Shown here piece after piece: positions 45,982-52,212 of a stretch of DNA of 64,000 nucleotides (its first letter is position 1; each line of letters starts with the position of its first letter). A program made the translations under genes and the position numbers. The DNA is from Clostridia bacterium (GTDB taxonomy: Bacteria > Bacillota > Clostridia > TANB77 > CAG-508), in assembly GCA_017429505.1 (NCBI GenBank), contig JAFROW010000011.1, positions 62,001 to 126,000 of the forward strand, in the 5' to 3' direction. Below the pieces are notes generated by a model. That model made no database searches. It was not told the DNA's origin and worked only from the letters and a program-made list of their open reading frames with translations.

Positions 45982-47352
45982 ATGAAAAAAACATTAAAAA
46001 AACAGACAAATAAAATTCAAAAGAAAGGTACAAATGGTATAACTCTTATAGCCCTTGTCATTACTATTATTGTTTTATTGATATTGGCTGGAATATCAAT
46101 TTCAATGCTAGCTGGAGATAATTCAATATTAAATAATGCTACAAGAGCAAAAGATGCAACAAGAGGAGGAGAAGTACAAGAAACAGTAAATTTAGCAGCA
46201 ATAAACAACGAAGGAGTAGATTACATTGGAGGAACTAAAAAAACAAGAGCAGATGTAATAAATGAATTACATTCAGCAGGAAAATTAACAGATGATGAAG
46301 TTGAAACACTGGAAGAAAGCGATATAATAACAATAGGTGGAATAACAATAGATTTTAGTGTGTTAGGTAGAGTAGGTTCATCAAACACATTAGTTGCAAT
46401 GTTCCAACAGGCAGTAACAGATGGATGCACAAATGCAGATGGAAGCTGTACTAGAGAAGACCATTTACATATAGGGGACTATGTGAATTATACAAATCCA
46501 ACAAGTGGAGACTGGACAGTTCCAGCAGGTGAATTAGGTGGAGAAGATGCTCAAACATACTTAGCATCACAAAACCAATTAAACTAGAGAGTACTTGGAA
46601 TAGAGGGAACAGGAGATAGTGCATATATAAAATTAATTGCAGGAAGTCCAATGAAAAAATCAAAAGCAGATAAAAGTGGTACAGATGAAAGTAATCCATA
46701 TTTATATATGAGAGGAGCAAAATCATATATAAATGCGATAGAGCAATTAAACAAAATATGTGCAATTTGTAAAAATGATACATTAGCAACAAAGGCTGAA
46801 AGCATAACCATGGATGATATAGATAAATTAACAGGAGTAACAACTGATGCTTTAAAACAATATTATAATTTAGATGCTTTTTTTGGAAATATAAACTATG
46901 GTGATTCATATAGTTTTACTGGCCAATATACACCAGAGAGTTGGCTTGCAACACCAAGAACAACTACAACAGTATTAGGAACAGTCGATGGATATTATTA
47001 TACTATTAACCAAGCAGTTGAGTCTGATGCTCCATATGTAAATATGTCAAATACAAGAGCATATAGTATGATATTTGATAATGTCGAATATGGTTCAGGA
47101 AGAGCTTACTGGCTTGCTTCCGTCGGAGTCTATGCATACTCTGACTTCGCTATCTTTGGTCCAGCTCGTGTTCTCGAGGATGGCGGCGTAGTCTATGCTG
47201 GTACTAACGGCATGTTCAATTCTCATAATGGCTTCGAGGATGTCAATAGCTATGCGGTTCGCCCAATAGTTTCTCTAAAATCTGGAGTCACTAACGAGCA
47301 AGTTTCTAAAACAACAGATAAAACTGAAACAACATGGAATTATGGTGGATAA
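45982..47352 (+). pseudogene. DGR target: prepilin-like surface protein with C-terminal variable domain, interrupted by in-frame TAG
   Basis: Two frames of 201 and 233 residues lie in one reading frame, separated by the TAG at 46585-46587; together they span 456 codons. The N-terminus is a type IV prepilin-like leader (KKGTNGITLIALVITIIVLL, cleavage expected after the Gly before ITLIALVI). The centre has HIGDYVNYTNPTSGDWTVPA and, after the stop, RVLGIEGTGDSAYIKLIAG. The C-terminus, from W377 (YWLASVGVYAYSDFAIFG to SYAVRPIVSLK), is the C-type-lectin-like variable domain and contains the 155-bp variable repeat. The stop sits before RVLG where family members typically have W-R-V-L, so TGG to TAG is likely. 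This may be a nonsense allele, a sequencing or population variant, or readthrough. Confidence 0.82.
47110..47264 (+). repeat. DGR variable repeat (VR)
   Basis: 155 bp aligned without gaps to the template repeat at 48199-48353. I count 19 mismatches, each at an adenine of the template, changing 14 codons (12 Asn and 2 Asp codons). The 3' end (last 20 bases of the repeat) is identical in both and precedes abrupt divergence, as expected for the initiation-of-mutagenic-homology site. No template-like adenine pattern is lost at C, G or T. Confidence 0.95.
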
Positions 47353-47360
47353 TACTAAAA

Positions 47361-47404
47361 GTCCCTAAGTAGGTCCTTAGGACTACTGAGGGACCACGCT
47401 TTTT
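47361..47404 (+). terminator. Hairpin downstream of the variable repeat
   Basis: GTCCCT (47361-47366) pairs with AGGGAC (47389-47394), and the inner AGTAGGTCC pairs with GGACTACT with one bulge; TTTTT follows at 47400-47404. It may end or attenuate the target transcript. DGRs studied in Bordetella phage also have a hairpin just after the variable repeat that aids retrohoming; here the distance is 96 bp. Confidence 0.6.
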
Positions 47405-47414
47405 AGGAGAAAAA

Positions 47415-47864
47415 ATGGGAATAATAAATATAGTGAAAAATACAAAAGAATTATATCCAAAATATATTACAATCGTTAAAGTTGGTAGTTTCTACTATTG
47501 CTATGGTAGAGATTGCTATATAATGGCATATTTGTTAAGATACAAAATTAATATTTTAAAAGATAACATATATTCTTGTGCATTTCCAAATAACGCAATA
47601 AATAAAGTAATGGCAACACTTGAAAATAATAAAATTAATTATTTGGTGCTGGATAGAAGAAATAATTATGATTTAGAAGAAAAAAGTGATAACAGAAATA
47701 TAAATAAATATGATGAAATATATGAAATTGCAAAAAAGTATATAAGCACAAAAATGCGAGTAGAAAAAATAAACCAATATTTGATGGGTAATTTAAAAGA
47801 TAAAGAACTAATTGATAAAATAGAAAAGGTAATAAATGAAAGAAGAAAAATTCAAAGTAATTAA
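47415..47864 (+). CDS. DGR accessory protein with MutS domain I-like fold (first copy)
   Basis: A 149-residue protein whose first about 90 residues resemble MutS domain I, the mismatch-contacting domain. YITIVKVGSFYYCYGRDCYI corresponds to the MutS pattern with G-x-F-Y-E-x-F-x-x-D-A, then LLRYKINI, and YSCAFPNNAINKVMATLENN with INYLVLDR corresponds to G-(V/F)-P-x-x-x-x-x-x-Y-x-x-x-L and the following beta strand. A helical C-terminal part follows. DGR surveys have reported 'MutS-like' accessory genes, so this is a known association, of unknown mechanism. AGGAGAAAAA precedes the ATG; the 3' end overlaps the avd-like gene by 29 bases. Confidence 0.68.
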   Translation: MGIINIVKNTKELYPKYITIVKVGSFYYCYGRDCYIMAYLLRYKINILKDNIYSCAFPNNAINKVMATLENNKINYLVLDRRNNYDLEEKSDNRNINKYDEIYEIAKKYISTKMRVEKINQYLMGNLKDKELIDKIEKVINERRKIQSN

Positions 47865-48177
47865 TTTTATAAGAGAACTAATAGTCTATATTGATAAATA
47901 TTTAGAGAATTTTCCGAAAAAAGATATAGAAATAAAAAATAGAATAAAGAATACAAGCTATGATATTTTAGAAGAAGCATATAAAGCAAATAATATAGAA
48001 AAAAATAAATCAGAACATATAGAAAATATTATAGCAAAAATAAAAGTGATAGATTTTTTACTAAATTTATGTTACGATAAGCAAATAATAAATCAAAAAA
48101 GATATATAAAATTTGGCGAAAAGATGGACGATATTTTAAAATATTGCATTGGATGGAAAAAAACAATTAATGCATAA
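47836..48177 (+). CDS. avd: Avd-like DGR accessory protein
   Basis: A 113-residue, all-helical protein matching the Avd/four-helix-bundle (23S rRNA intervening-sequence-like) family. It has ENFPKKDIEIKNRIKNTSYD, ILEEAYKANNI, IAKIKVIDFLLNLCYDKQII and the end QKRYIKFGEKMDDILKYCIG with WKKT. Avd forms a positively charged pentamer that binds the reverse transcriptase and template RNA and is essential for cDNA synthesis in the Bordetella phage DGR. It is translationally coupled to the MutS-like gene, and its stop codon is 21 bases before the template repeat, as in classical DGRs. Confidence 0.82.
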   Translation: MKEEKFKVINFIRELIVYIDKYLENFPKKDIEIKNRIKNTSYDILEEAYKANNIEKNKSEHIENIIAKIKVIDFLLNLCYDKQIINQKRYIKFGEKMDDILKYCIGWKKTINA

Positions 48178-48198
48178 TAAATTGGGGCATAGTTGATG

Positions 48199-48353
48199 TG
48201 GCTTGCTTCCGTCGGAGTCAATGCAAACTCTGACAACGCTAACTTTGGTCCAGCTAATGTTAACGAGAATGACGGCGTAGTCAATGCTGGTACTAACAAC
48301 ATGTTCAATTCTAATAATGGCAACGAGAATGACAATAGCTATGCGGTTCGCCC
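48199..48353 (+). repeat. DGR template repeat (TR)
   Basis: 155 bp matching the variable repeat at 47110-47264. Many AAC/AAT codons stand where the target frame has Tyr, Phe, Ile, Arg, Leu, Gly, His and Asp. GC content is well above the surrounding sequence. Confidence 0.95.
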
Positions 48354-48514
48354 CGTAGATTCTATAAACTGTGGTTGTATAATTAAAGATTATGCAAGAG
48401 ATAATATAGAAACAAACTATGTCCATTAGTAGTAGTAACTGCTATAAACAAAAAAGAGATAATTATATTTGTTAGTAAACTAATTGAAAGGGAATATAAT
48501 TTAGGACTGTTTTT

Positions 48515-48541
48515 AAGGATGCTGTTTAAGCATCCTTTTTT
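48515..48541. terminator. Terminator at the end of the template RNA, overlapping the RT gene end
   Basis: AAGGATGC (48515-48522) pairs with GCATCCTT (48530-48537), with a T-run to 48541. It overlaps the last codons of the convergent reverse transcriptase gene. Confidence 0.85.
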
Positions 48542-49473
48542 CTGAAATTTTTATATGCCATATGGCTAGAAAGATAAGAGCTAAAGCTTATTTTTCCTGT
48601 TTCATATAAATATTTTCTATATTTTAGTTTCCTTTTTACAGTTCTGTATTTAGCATATTTTCCAGAGACATCGCGACCTAAAAAGATAAAATGATTTGTA
48701 CTTTTATATAGCCTACTTTTTCGATTTAAAACCAAATGTTCTTTTTCTAAAAATTTTTGTATAAATAAAAAACATTTTTTTAAATAATCTTTAGATTCAT
48801 GAAATAATAAAAAGTCATCTTGATATCTAACATAATACTTGATTTTTAAATCTTCTTTTATATAGTAGTCCAAGTCATTTAAATAAAAAACAGCTAGAAC
48901 TTGACTAGTCATATTTCCAATGCCAAGTCCATTTTCTTCAGAATCTATAATTTTATATACAATATCTAATGCATCCTTATCTTTGATTTTCTTTTGTAGT
49001 TTAGTCTTTAAAATTTCTTTATCAATACTTGCAAAAAATTTGCTTATATCACATTTTAGAATATAATAAGTTCCATACTTAATTTTACATTTTTGATGAT
49101 ATAGTTTAGCAAGTCTTAGTCCTTCTTTTGTTCCTCTATCTTTAATACTTGCAATATTTTCAGGAATAAGACATGACATTAACGCTGGATATAAAATATA
49201 TCTACTAACAAGATGATTAACTATTTTATCTTGTAGATTTTGACTTACTATTCGTCTTTCTTTTGGTTCGTAGATTGTAAAGATATTGTACGGACCTACT
49301 TTATAGCTCTTATCTTTTAATATATTATATATTCTACTTATATAAATACATTTATATTGTTTGTAATTGTCAACTTTCCTTTTATTCTTTGTATTCTTAC
49401 AAACCTCATTAAAAGCAGCTTGAATATTTTCCATCTTATAAATATTTTCATATAAATTACTTTTTCTCTTCAT
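48526..49473 (-). CDS. DGR reverse transcriptase
   Basis: A 315-residue reverse transcriptase. The palm shows KCDISKFFASID (first catalytic Asp, residues 140-151), GIGNMTSQVLAVFYLNDLD (residues 184-202) and YVRYQDDFLLFHES (YxDD box at 217-220). The G-x-x-x-S-Q form of the middle motif is diagnostic of DGR reverse transcriptases; group II introns and retrons differ there. This low-fidelity enzyme copies the template RNA with random incorporation at adenines. It is transcribed towards the template repeat, opposite to the classical order. GAGG lies 9 bases before the ATG. Its 5' end overlaps the upstream MutS-like gene by 17 bases. Confidence 0.95.
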   Translation of the reverse strand: MKRKSNLYENIYKMENIQAAFNEVCKNTKNKRKVDNYKQYKCIYISRIYNILKDKSYKVGPYNIFTIYEPKERRIVSQNLQDKIVNHLVSRYILYPALMSCLIPENIASIKDRGTKEGLRLAKLYHQKCKIKYGTYYILKCDISKFFASIDKEILKTKLQKKIKDKDALDIVYKIIDSEENGLGIGNMTSQVLAVFYLNDLDYYIKEDLKIKYYVRYQDDFLLFHESKDYLKKCFLFIQKFLEKEHLVLNRKSRLYKSTNHFIFLGRDVSGKYAKYRTVKRKLKYRKYLYETGKISFSSYLSSHMAYKNFRKKDA

Positions 49474-49891
49474 AAGGGGTAACCTCTAAAATATTATTTG
49501 CTTCTTGTTTTAATTCTTCTAAGACATCATATGCTTCACTAATAGATAAACTATCAACTTTTAAATTAGATATTTTATTTATAAATTTATGTATTTTTGT
49601 TTTAAATAAATATTCCTCGTAATTAAATAATGAATTTGTAGAAAAATCTACTATTTCAACTGCATAACCATATTGTTTTAAAAGTTTCATATATTTATCT
49701 AGTGAGTTAACAGGAAAACCACATTTTACTATTTTTGAATTTAAGTTTCCTAATTTCAAGTTTAAAGGTTTGTGGAGTTCTTTTGCATTATCATCTATAA
49801 ATATATAGAAAATACCACTTTTAAATAAATATTTTTTATATGGACTTTTTATTTTTAAAGATATATAGTTAGCATATAATTTACTACTCAT
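49457..49891 (-). CDS. DGR accessory protein with MutS domain I-like fold (second copy)
   Basis: A 144-residue protein resembling the product of 47415. KSPYKKYLFKSGIFYIFIDD with NAKELHKPL and KCGFPVNSLDKYMKLLKQYG followed by YAVEIVDF corresponds to the MutS domain I core (F-R-x-G-x-F-Y-x-x-x-x-x-D-A ... G-x-P-x-x-x-L-x-x-Y-x-x-x-L-x-x-x-G-Y-x-V-x-I-x-x). The match is clearer here than in the first copy. A helical tail follows. It overlaps and leads the reverse transcriptase gene. GGAGGAATTCAA precedes the ATG on the minus strand. Having two such genes, one on each arm of a DGR, is notable. Confidence 0.74.
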   Translation of the reverse strand: MSSKLYANYISLKIKSPYKKYLFKSGIFYIFIDDNAKELHKPLNLKLGNLNSKIVKCGFPVNSLDKYMKLLKQYGYAVEIVDFSTNSLFNYEEYLFKTKIHKFINKISNLKVDSLSISEAYDVLEELKQEANNILEVTPYEEKK

Positions 49892-50035
49892 TTGAATTCC
49901 TCCTTCTATTGTATTTATTATATAAAACTAATTAGAAAATTTTAACCACTACAAATGGTTGTAAAATATGTAGTAAATAGTGATTAAAATAAGAGCATGC
50001 ACATTATATAATTTATACTAGAAGGCGTTAATTAA

Positions 50036-50386
50036 ATGTCATATTTTAGTAGTAAATTTTATAAAAAAGAAAGAACAATTAATAGAACATTAAATATTGA
50101 TGAAGAACTATATATGGAGCTTGAAAGGTTATCTAAAGATATATATGATGCATCTATTACTAAGTTAGTAAATGCAGCTATTGAAAAATTAATTGAAACA
50201 GAGAATATTCAAATTTACGAGAGAAAAAATAAATCTTATGTTTCTCGTTCTTTTTTGGTAAGAGAAAGTTTATTAGACAGTTTATATGATTTGAAAGATA
50301 AGTATGGTGTTTCAATTTGTTTACTAGTAAATGTGGCAATAAGGAATGCATTACTTGAAGAAAAAGCTTTTAGTATAAAAGTTTAA
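50036..50386 (+). CDS. Ribbon-helix-helix-like regulator
   Basis: A 116-residue protein with two similar halves that each look like a ribbon-helix-helix unit. One is RTLNIDEELYMELERLSKDI with ITKLVNAAIEKLI (about residues 17-55); the other is RSFLVRESLLDSLYDLKDKY with ICLLVNVAIRNALL (about residues 71-108). It is divergent from the RT operon, with the start about 145 bp from the other start codon, so it could regulate that operon or itself. Only a weak ribosome binding site (AAGGCG) is visible. No toxin-like gene follows directly. Confidence 0.6.
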   Translation: MSYFSSKFYKKERTINRTLNIDEELYMELERLSKDIYDASITKLVNAAIEKLIETENIQIYERKNKSYVSRSFLVRESLLDSLYDLKDKYGVSICLLVNVAIRNALLEEKAFSIKV

Positions 50387-50544: not shown

Positions 50545-52212
50545 ATGCAAGGAATAGGAATAGGAGTAAGTGATTTTAAAATATTAAGAGTAAAAGAAAA
50601 TTACTTTATAGACAAATCTCTATTTATAAAACACATATTAGATAATCAATCAGCAATAGCATTAATAACACGTCCAAGAAGATTTGGAAAAACTTTAAAT
50701 ATGAGTATGTTAAGACATTTTCTAGACTGCAATCAAAAAGATTCACGTAAGCTTTTTGAAGGTTTAAAAATAATGGAACAAGGAGAAAAATACACAGAAA
50801 AATTAGGCGCATATCCATGTATATATGTAACAATGAAAGATGTTCAAGGAGATAATTTTGAAGAAATGCTATATTTTTTCCAAACACAACTTATAGAATT
50901 ATTTATGGAACATCTACAACTTTTAAAAAGTGAAAAAGTATTAGAGATTGAAAAAGAAAGATTTAATACAATATTAAATTTGAAAGCAAATAAACCTCAA
51001 TTACAAGAAGCTATAAAATTACTATCTCGAATGCTTTATGTAGAACATGAAAAGCCTGTATTTATAATCATAGATGAGTATGATGTTCCACTACAAAATG
51101 CTTATGTAAAAGGCTTTTATGATGATGCAATAAAGTTTTTTAGAACATTTTACGGAATTACATTTAAAGATAATCAATATATGGAAAAAACGGTTTTAAC
51201 TGGAGTTTCAAGAGTTGCCAAAGAAAGTATTTTTAGTGGAGCAAATAATTTTGATGTATATACAGTTTTAGATAATGAATTTAGTGAAGATTTTGGGATA
51301 ACATCAGAAGAGATTGATAAAGTATTAAAAGACTTTGGGATAGAAGAAAATGTAGAAGAAATAAAGAGATGGTATGATGGTTATAAAATAGGACAAACAG
51401 AAGGAATATATAACCCATGGAGCATACTAAAATATTTAAAACAAAGAGAATTAGTACCATATTGGGTAAATACAAGCTCAAATGATTTAATAAAGTTAAT
51501 TTTAACAAGGTCAAGCAGTGTAAAAGAAAGAATAGAACGACTAATGAAAGGTGAGGCTATAGAAGCAAAAATAAATCTTGAAACTATAATAGTCGGAATA
51601 GAAAATAATGAAGATAATATTTGGGGATTGCTTGTAGGAACAGGTTATTTAAAAGTAACAGAAGTAGTTGATTTAGCTGAAAGCATATATAAAGTAAAAA
51701 TTGTAAATAATGAAATTAGAATACTATTTTCTCAAATAATAAGAGAATGGTTCTCAAATAAAGTAATAGGAAATGACTTAAATAGCATAATGAAAGACTT
51801 AGTAACACTTAATCTAAGCGAATTTAAAAAGAAATTTCAAATACTTGTAATGCAAATGTTTAGCTATATGGATGTTGGAAATGATACGGCAGAGAATTTT
51901 TATCACGCATTTGTATTAGGAATGCTAGTATCACTTAAAGATACTTATGTTGTAAATTCTAACAGAGAGTCAGGAATGGGAAGATATGACATAATGTTAG
52001 AGCCAAAAGATAAAAATGCAAATAGCTTTATAATGGAATTTAAAGTATTAGAAAATATGGAAGAAAAAACAATTGAAGAAACAATTGCAAATGCTAAAAA
52101 ACAAATAGAAGATAAACAATATGAAACATCTTTAAAAGAAAGAGGCTTTACAAATATTACAAAAATGGTATTTGCATTTGATGGAAAAGAAGTAAAAATA
52201 GAGGAATATTAA
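50545..52212 (+). CDS. AAA-ATPase-like / PD-(D/E)XK nuclease fusion (DUF1703 family)
   Basis: A 555-residue protein common in gut anaerobes. The N-terminal AAA-like domain has DFKILRVKENYFIDKSLFIK, RPRRFGKTLNMSMLRHFLD (variant Walker A) and PVFIIIDEYDVPLQNAYVKG (Walker B). A linker with KRWYDGYKIGQTEGIYNPWS is family-typical. The C-terminal nuclease-like domain has GRYDIMLEPKDKNANSFIME with FKV (Asp ... Glu-x-Lys-like core) near residue 475. The function is unresolved; the family is often multi-copy and thought mobile or defensive. AGGAGGAACAC precedes the ATG. Confidence 0.86.
   Translation: MQGIGIGVSDFKILRVKENYFIDKSLFIKHILDNQSAIALITRPRRFGKTLNMSMLRHFLDCNQKDSRKLFEGLKIMEQGEKYTEKLGAYPCIYVTMKDVQGDNFEEMLYFFQTQLIELFMEHLQLLKSEKVLEIEKERFNTILNLKANKPQLQEAIKLLSRMLYVEHEKPVFIIIDEYDVPLQNAYVKGFYDDAIKFFRTFYGITFKDNQYMEKTVLTGVSRVAKESIFSGANNFDVYTVLDNEFSEDFGITSEEIDKVLKDFGIEENVEEIKRWYDGYKIGQTEGIYNPWSILKYLKQRELVPYWVNTSSNDLIKLILTRSSSVKERIERLMKGEAIEAKINLETIIVGIENNEDNIWGLLVGTGYLKVTEVVDLAESIYKVKIVNNEIRILFSQIIREWFSNKVIGNDLNSIMKDLVTLNLSEFKKKFQILVMQMFSYMDVGNDTAENFYHAFVLGMLVSLKDTYVVNSNRESGMGRYDIMLEPKDKNANSFIMEFKVLENMEEKTIEETIANAKKQIEDKQYETSLKERGFTNITKMVFAFDGKEVKIEEY

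What the first reader, a model, noticed from the sequence alone, without database searches (positions are those of the whole stretch)
45982..49891. Complete diversity-generating retroelement with reverse transcriptase operon facing the template repeat
Seen directly: a prepilin-like target with a C-terminal 155-bp variable repeat, a MutS-like gene, an Avd-like gene, a 155-bp template repeat, and on the opposite strand a reverse transcriptase with the DGR-type S-Q motif and YxDD box, preceded by a second MutS-like gene. Known: classical DGRs keep target, avd, TR and RT on one strand. Inference: here the RT is produced from its own promoter and transcribed towards the TR, so template RNA and RT supply can be tuned separately. 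The whole set fits in 3.9 kb and is flanked by chromosomal stress genes, not by phage genes, so it is a cellular DGR.
Basis: partly seen in the sequence, partly recalled or inferred. Interest (0 to 1): 0.93.

Follow-up and report, generated by a model that had tools for sequence, protein, structure and literature searches.

The report
Two-operon mutagenic retroelement with likely repressor
An uncultured bacterium carries a gene-mutating retroelement whose reverse transcriptase gene faces its template on the opposite strand and lies beside a gene for a predicted DNA-binding protein, so the cell could likely set the dose of the mutator enzyme separately; the element's own target gene, however, contains a premature stop codon.

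Summary
Window 45982-49891 carries a diversity-generating retroelement (DGR): all 19 mismatches between the 155-bp VR and TR fall on TR adenines (P 2e-12), the RT, Avd and two MutS-domain-I (MSL) genes are real, and the RT faces the TR. MSL genes and an inverted RT are already known in DGRs. All 16 MSL2-bearing loci of this RT clade have an RHH or XRE gene beside MSL2, against 3 of 21 without MSL2. (2) RT orientation changed at least five times in this clade, without flanking inverted repeats; a second, distant RT clade has RHH | MSL2-Avd-RT facing the TR. (3) The template RNA ends in a structurally conserved spacer and a terminator-like hairpin. Against a working element here: the target has an in-frame TAG where 40 of 40 homologues have tryptophan, and no other VR was found. 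RHH control of the RT is inferred, not shown; outside the genus RHH is rare (1 of 20 MSL2 loci).

The parts
45982..47352 (+). Target gene: prepilin-like N-terminus, C-terminal variable domain; cut by an in-frame TAG at 46585-46587
   Evidence: One frame; homologues of full length and Trp in 40 of 40 at the TAG column; N_methyl weakly (E 0.042, below cut-off); 10 of 46 family members match N_methyl at E<=0.01
47110..47264 (+). Variable repeat (VR)
   Evidence: 19 mismatches to TR, all at TR adenines; first non-adenine mismatches at 47265-47266
47361..47394 (+). Hairpin just after the target's stop codon, candidate retrohoming hairpin
   Evidence: Coordinates; minimum-energy folds show such a hairpin in 17 of 19 loci, judged by eye (not in L040, L053)
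47415..47864 (+). MSL1, MutS domain I protein
   Evidence: Pfam MutS_I 30.9 bits
47836..48177 (+). Avd
   Evidence: Pfam bAvd 45.9 bits; PHROG Avd E 5e-19
48199..48353 (+). Template repeat (TR)
   Evidence: only TR in the own genome by BLAST
48354..48514 (+). Structured spacer of the template RNA
   Evidence: Conserved in 22 loci of both RT orientations; 29 consensus pairs, 19 with two-sided changes
48515..48541 (+). Terminator-like hairpin and T run ending the template RNA; overlaps the RT 3' end
   Evidence: 48515-48537; 2 such sites found in the region vs 1.3 in shuffles; similar hairpins after the spacer in the 22 aligned loci, by eye
48526..49473 (-). DGR-type reverse transcriptase, 315 aa
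   Evidence: Pfam RVT_1, PHROG RT E 8.5e-78, PDB 8ub7 E 1.2e-27, SQ and YQDD
49457..49891 (-). MSL2, MutS domain I protein; overlaps the RT start by 17 nt
   Evidence: Pfam MutS_I 38.3 bits; overlap
49917..49945 (-). Promoter-like site for MSL2-RT (TTAAAA-17-TATAAT)
   Evidence: such sites are not more frequent here than in shuffles: 44 vs 36.7, sd 5.4; -10 box conserved, 6 of 8 columns invariant in 8 loci
49939..49990 (.). Candidate operator: 13-bp inverted repeat over both -35 regions
   Evidence: 0 of 40 shuffles reach it in the window, but not significant in several relatives; conserved block in 8 loci
49984..50012 (+). Promoter-like site for the RHH gene
   Evidence: -10 box invariant in 8 of 8 columns
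50036..50386 (+). Tandem ribbon-helix-helix protein, likely regulator of MSL2-RT

Best explanation
This is a diversity-generating retroelement with all its parts present but a stop codon inside its target gene, laid out as facing transcription units, in which template RNA and reverse transcriptase are predicted to come from separate promoters and the reverse transcriptase unit is likely held in check by a predicted ribbon-helix-helix protein encoded divergently beside it. The forward unit is target, MSL1, Avd, TR, structured spacer, terminator-like hairpin; the reverse unit is MSL2-RT. Inferred steps: the RHH protein binds between the two divergent promoters and limits MSL2-RT and its own expression; when it lets go, RT with Avd copies the TR RNA, using its structured spacer, and misreads adenines; the cDNA replaces the VR, marked at its 3' side by a hairpin, and would remodel the predicted lectin-like end of a prepilin-like surface protein. 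In this assembly the stop codon in the target would prevent display of the variants.
For: DGR: 19 of 19 VR/TR mismatches at adenines; Avd, MSL and RT matches; AAN codons of the VR hypervariable among homologues (2.5 vs 0.54 bits, P 5e-8). Two units: RT opposite to Avd/MSL1 in 22 of 37 loci of the clade, same strand in 8, undetermined in 7; spacer RNA with covariation (0 of 500 shuffles) and terminator-like end. Regulator: RHH (10) or XRE (6) gene beside MSL2 in 16 of 16 MSL2-bearing loci, against 3 of 21 without MSL2; 19 of 23 RHH genes near an RT are divergent from it; conserved block between the two -10 boxes in 8 loci; cassette incl. RHH at different sites (21 of 666 locus pairs share a flank gene, none with the window); RHH | MSL2-Avd-RT facing TR in a second RT clade.
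Against: No transcript, binding or activity data. The in-frame TAG in the only target found. Promoter-like and terminator-like sites are no more frequent than in shuffles. The inverted repeat is not significant in several relatives. Only one of five AF2 models of the RHH protein is confident (82.7; others 47-58), Foldseek gave no match with E<=0.001, and Pfam gave no RHH match for the window's protein. Many RHH hits (92 of 115) are not near a listed RT. Of 20 MSL2 loci in other genera only one has RHH. L033 has MSL2 but neither regulator.
Confidence: 0.6

Rival explanations
1. An ordinary chromosomal DGR in which RT orientation is neutral: the RT is read from whatever promoter is near, and the RHH gene regulates itself or something else.
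For: Eight loci of the clade keep the RT on the TR strand and 18 of the 21 loci without MSL2 show no RHH/XRE gene, four of them with under 500 bp held upstream of the RT; 92 of 115 RHH hits are not near a listed RT; 16 of 20 MSL2 loci in other genera show none called.
Against: The RHH or XRE gene tracks MSL2 (16 of 16) and the RHH-MSL2 promoter block is conserved; a second RT clade has the same layout (loci chosen for an RHH near the RT).
Confidence: 0.3
2. A decaying relic: the DGR has lost its target to a nonsense mutation and is no longer selected.
For: TAG in the target at a column that is Trp in 40 of 40 homologues; a single VR in the genome; several relatives have RT genes with stops, frameshifts or deletions.
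Against: RT, Avd, MSL1, MSL2 and RHH frames are open; no non-adenine difference between VR and TR over 155 bp, so the last homing is recent. A MAG consensus error is possible.
Confidence: 0.25
3. The RT is an invertible, phase-variable segment that switches between the TR unit and the MSL2 unit within a population.
For: RT flipped relative to an unmoved MSL2 in L042 and L063; at least five orientation changes on the RT tree.
Against: No inverted repeats of score 12 or more flank the RT in 23 of 24 loci; the two in L069 are within the shuffle range. No recombinase gene was looked for or noticed beside the RT.
Confidence: 0.03

Closest known systems
Bordetella phage BPP-1 DGR (NC_005357)
   Same: VR in the 3' part of the target, Avd, TR, RT, hairpin after the VR; adenine-specific VR/TR differences. 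Annotation seen; hairpin need from PMC3240598 passages.
   Different: BPP-1 keeps mtd, avd, TR and brt on one strand, is phage-borne and has no MSL or RHH gene annotated in the 8 kb seen; here the RT is reversed, with MSL2 and a divergent RHH gene, and the hairpin starts 97 nt after the VR.
RT-inverted DGR cassette pattern G5 (Yan et al. 2019, PMC6642488, passages read)
   Same: RT inverted relative to TR and VR; over 20 times rarer than the canonical pattern there.
   Different: The passages seen describe order and strand only, without MSL2, a regulator or repeated flips inside one RT clade.
MSL (PF01624) accessory of DGRs (PMC10053308, passages and part 1 of its Results; original 2018 survey recalled, not held)
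   Same: Small MutS domain I proteins next to a DGR.
   Different: Two MSL genes here, one with Avd and TR, one with the RT and divergent from RHH.
Tandem RHH proteins (F plasmid relaxosome chains, which I recall as TraY; single-chain Arc)
   Same: Predicted beta-alpha-alpha-beta-alpha-alpha order; Foldseek prob 1.00 (E 2.4e-3) and 0.96 (E 0.24).
   Different: 9-14% identity in those rows; borne by a DGR cassette; DNA binding untested.

Membership tests
Diversity-generating retroelement | TR/VR pair whose differences lie at TR adenines | tested here: met
   19 of 19 mismatches, P 2.3e-12
Diversity-generating retroelement | DGR-type reverse transcriptase | tested here: met
   SQ and YQDD; falls with BPP-1 and ANMV-1 RTs (96/92) in a 25-row tree rooted on two group II intron RTs, long branches; PDB best match 8ub7, recalled as the BPP-1 enzyme. 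No retron or other RT class was in the tree.
Diversity-generating retroelement | Avd accessory protein | tested here: met
   Pfam bAvd above cut-off, PHROG Avd E 5e-19; NCBIfam Avd below its cut-off
Diversity-generating retroelement | Target with C-type-lectin-like variable domain | tested here: inconclusive
Diversity-generating retroelement | Adenine-specific VR change among strains | not testable with these tools
   No reads or strain DNA; between species AAN codons are the variable ones
DGR MSL accessory | MutS domain I | tested here: met
   30.9 and 38.3 bits vs cut-off 20.6
Ribbon-helix-helix regulator | Tandem RHH fold | tested here: inconclusive
   Best model 82.7 but the other four 47-58; Foldseek prob 1.00 yet no E<=0.001; PHROG Arc-like E 4e-4; no Pfam RHH match for the window's protein, a relative just under cut-off
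Ribbon-helix-helix regulator | Binds and controls the MSL2-RT promoter | not testable with these tools
   Inferred from position and conservation
Invertible (phase-variable) element | Inverted repeats flanking the RT | tested here: not met
   24 loci, none above shuffle

The most novel reading that the evidence does not exclude
DGRs with their own mutator switch: the reverse transcriptase has come, in two distant RT clades, under an MSL2 promoter controlled by a dedicated repressor (RHH, or XRE with a second small protein) that travels with the cassette and faces a separately terminated template RNA. Diversification would then be turned on by dosing RT alone, with MSL2 a partner of the RT rather than of the template.
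Probability: 0.4. Interest if true: 0.78.

Novelty: new variant of a known kind. Interest (0 to 1): 0.6.

Why it matters
How cells decide when to run a DGR is, as far as I know, largely open. A cassette-borne candidate regulator on the RT promoter makes it testable: remove one small gene and sequence the VR. Repeated RT flips within one clade indicate that template and enzyme need not share a transcript.

Tried and rejected
Invertible switch: no flanking inverted repeats above shuffle in 24 loci. Recoded TAG: not supported, TAG ends 15 of 58 ORFs of 150 aa or more in the window, a list that includes the target's own TAG and overlapping chance ORFs. Phage-borne element: no close viral, phage or plasmid relative. 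Empty-site comparison: in 19 relatives' loci around hrcA, grpE is next to it, and no ClpC, AAA/PDDEXK gene or cassette part was found in the up to 1.5 kb held upstream, so the original junction could not be shown. Foldseek of the target: no match with E<=0.001. PADLOC RT hits are generic. Papers: eight searches; an RHH or CopG regulator of a DGR was sought and not seen in the listings. The 2018 genomic survey of DGRs that I recall as naming MSL is not held, so mention there is not excluded. My searches of the literature for group II introns in DGR RT genes were read as listings only.
Full report
Observation. The 155-bp repeats 47110-47264 (VR) and 48199-48353 (TR) differ at 19 positions, all TR adenines; a wider 163-bp stretch gives 20 adenine and 2 other differences, the latter at the 3' boundary. 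Avd and both MutS_I proteins are supported by profile matches. The RT carries SQ and YQDD; its best PDB match is 8ub7, E 1.2e-27, the next 6.9e-8; I recall 8ub7 as the BPP-1 DGR enzyme. In a 25-row tree rooted on two group II intron RTs it falls with the BPP-1 and ANMV-1 RTs (96/92), with long branches. The own genome (2.0 Mb, 14 contigs, 96% complete) shows one RT match, one TR and one VR and one target.

Relatives and RT flips. I fetched 36 loci of the window's RT clade: 35 listed matches at 51% identity or more, plus one fragmentary match in G004 (L037-L072; four more stretches there were distant controls). With the window that makes 37: RT opposite to Avd/MSL1 in 22, same strand in 8, undetermined in 7. 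Some are near-copies (L044/L058/L072; L041/L059). From another collection L031 is same-strand and L033 and L034 are opposite. On a 38-row RT tree orientation changes at least five times (its bootstrap had not settled and many forks are open). In L042 and L063 the RT is flipped while MSL2 stays put. In 24 loci no inverted repeat flanks the RT above shuffle, so I read the flips as evolutionary.

The missed gene. ORF 50036-50386: the best AF2 model (82.7; the other four 47-58) is a tandem beta-alpha-alpha unit, and Foldseek puts F plasmid relaxosome chains (prob 1.00, E 2.4e-3) and single-chain Arc (prob 0.96, E 0.24) high, none with E<=0.001. PHROG Arc-like E 4e-4; no Pfam RHH match. Among the 37 loci, all 16 with MSL2 carry an RHH gene (10) or an XRE gene (6); of 21 without MSL2, 3 do (4 of the 21 have under 500 bp held upstream of the RT; Fisher P 1e-6 on 16/16 vs 3/17, loci not independent). 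RHH genes are divergent from MSL2 (680 nt away in L063); in the XRE type a small ORF (ORF108-like) is divergent and the XRE gene lies beyond it on the MSL2 strand. L033, outside this set, has MSL2 and neither. In the genus, RHH hits occur in 77 of 194 genomes (115 listed); 23 of 115 lie within 5 kb of a listed RT and 19 of these are divergent. Of the 11 best RHH loci outside the own genome (L082-L092), 9 have MSL2 directly divergent, L089 and L091 do not; the next 18 (L093-L110, at most 53% identity) show no MSL2 in the flanks held.

Promoter block. In 8 loci the intergenic region keeps both -10 boxes (6 of 8 and 8 of 8 columns invariant) and much between them (arms 6 and 5 of 13, middle 9 of 26), while the leaders vary (0 of 24, 1 of 23). 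The 13-bp inverted repeat over both -35 regions is reached by 0 of 40 shuffles in the window, but relatives range up to 38 of 40 for their best repeat, so conservation is the better argument. Promoter-like sites in general are not enriched (44 vs 36.7 in shuffles). Flank genes are shared by 21 of 666 locus pairs and by none with the window, so RHH appears to travel with the cassette.

A second clade. Ten loci picked because an RHH lay near a distant RT (L114-L123, a biased choice) all read RHH | MSL2-Avd-RT; in the 8 with a TR found, the RT faces it. Their RTs form one clade (SH-aLRT 99) apart from the window's (100) in a quick 52-row tree. Other loci differ: L111 and L124 have RHH-MSL2 pointing at an RT on the other strand, L112 and L113 have RHH-MSL2 without an RT in the stretch. 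Of 20 MSL2 loci I chose from other genera (114 of 390 family genomes have MSL2), a TR was found in 14: RT opposite to it in 8 (L139, L140, L142, L143, L144, L147, L153, L155), same strand in 6 (L141, L146, L148, L150, L152, L154). Only L148 has RHH; by eye L141 and L153 have an HTH gene and L152 an ORF108-like gene divergent from MSL2; 16 show none. The regulator thus looks like a lineage-level addition.

Template RNA. The spacer after the TR is conserved in 22 loci of both orientations: 29 consensus pairs, 19 with two-sided changes, 96.3% of cells paired, covariation score 0.433 vs 0.195 in shuffles (0 of 500) and at most 0.098 when slid; the structure was derived from the same alignment. By eye each ends in a terminator-like hairpin, in the window 48515-48537 with a T run, overlapping the RT's last codons. 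A hairpin follows the target's stop codon at 47361-47394; minimum-energy folds show one there in 17 of 19 loci, by eye. In BPP-1 a hairpin after the VR is needed for homing (PMC3240598, passages), at 4-34 bp in the phage examples there; here it starts 97 nt after the VR, so the parallel is tentative.

Known and new. RT inversion is a catalogued pattern (PMC6642488, passages); MSL is a known accessory (PMC10053308, passages and part of the Results). Passages of PMC8144416, PMC8867640 and PMC12875486 showed nothing on a dedicated RT regulator. I saw no report of a DGR-borne RHH regulator in the listings. Verdict: new variant of a known kind. Shown: anatomy, conservation, association, RNA covariation. 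Inferred: repression, separate dosing, homing route, display.

Noticed in passing
L056:7722-10322 (+), L058:4160-6749 (-): Group II introns (Rfam RF02004 and RF00029) sit inside the DGR RT gene after residue 224, four residues past YQDD, in two genomes; the L058 intron encodes its own RT (Pfam RVT_1 E 6e-42).
   Followed up: partly
window 46585-46587: In-frame TAG in the target at a column that is Trp in 40 of 40 aligned homologues.
   Followed up: yes
L112:7295-8165, L113:6649-7516: RHH-MSL2 pairs without an RT in the stretch held: remnants, or MSL2 acting apart from an RT.
   Followed up: no
L148:3399-6913: A window-type Avd and RT on one strand face a second Avd-MSL2 pair with two RHH genes: looks like a hybrid of both clades' layouts.
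   Followed up: no
L043, L044, L045, L058, L072 upstream of MSL2: Alternative regulator set: a small ORF and an XRE gene, with a short palindrome (GACAAGA-AAG-TCTTGTC type) before MSL2; 2 to 7 of 40 shuffles reach it per locus.
   Followed up: partly
window 50545-52212: AAA-ATPase_like/PDDEXK_9 gene between the RHH gene and hrcA; not found upstream of hrcA in 19 relatives' loci.
   Followed up: partly
L054, L060, L063, L064, L065, L069, L033 and others: Several related loci have RT genes with frameshifts, stops or missing parts, though TR/VR pairs with mainly adenine differences remain in many (the finder used selects for these).
   Followed up: no
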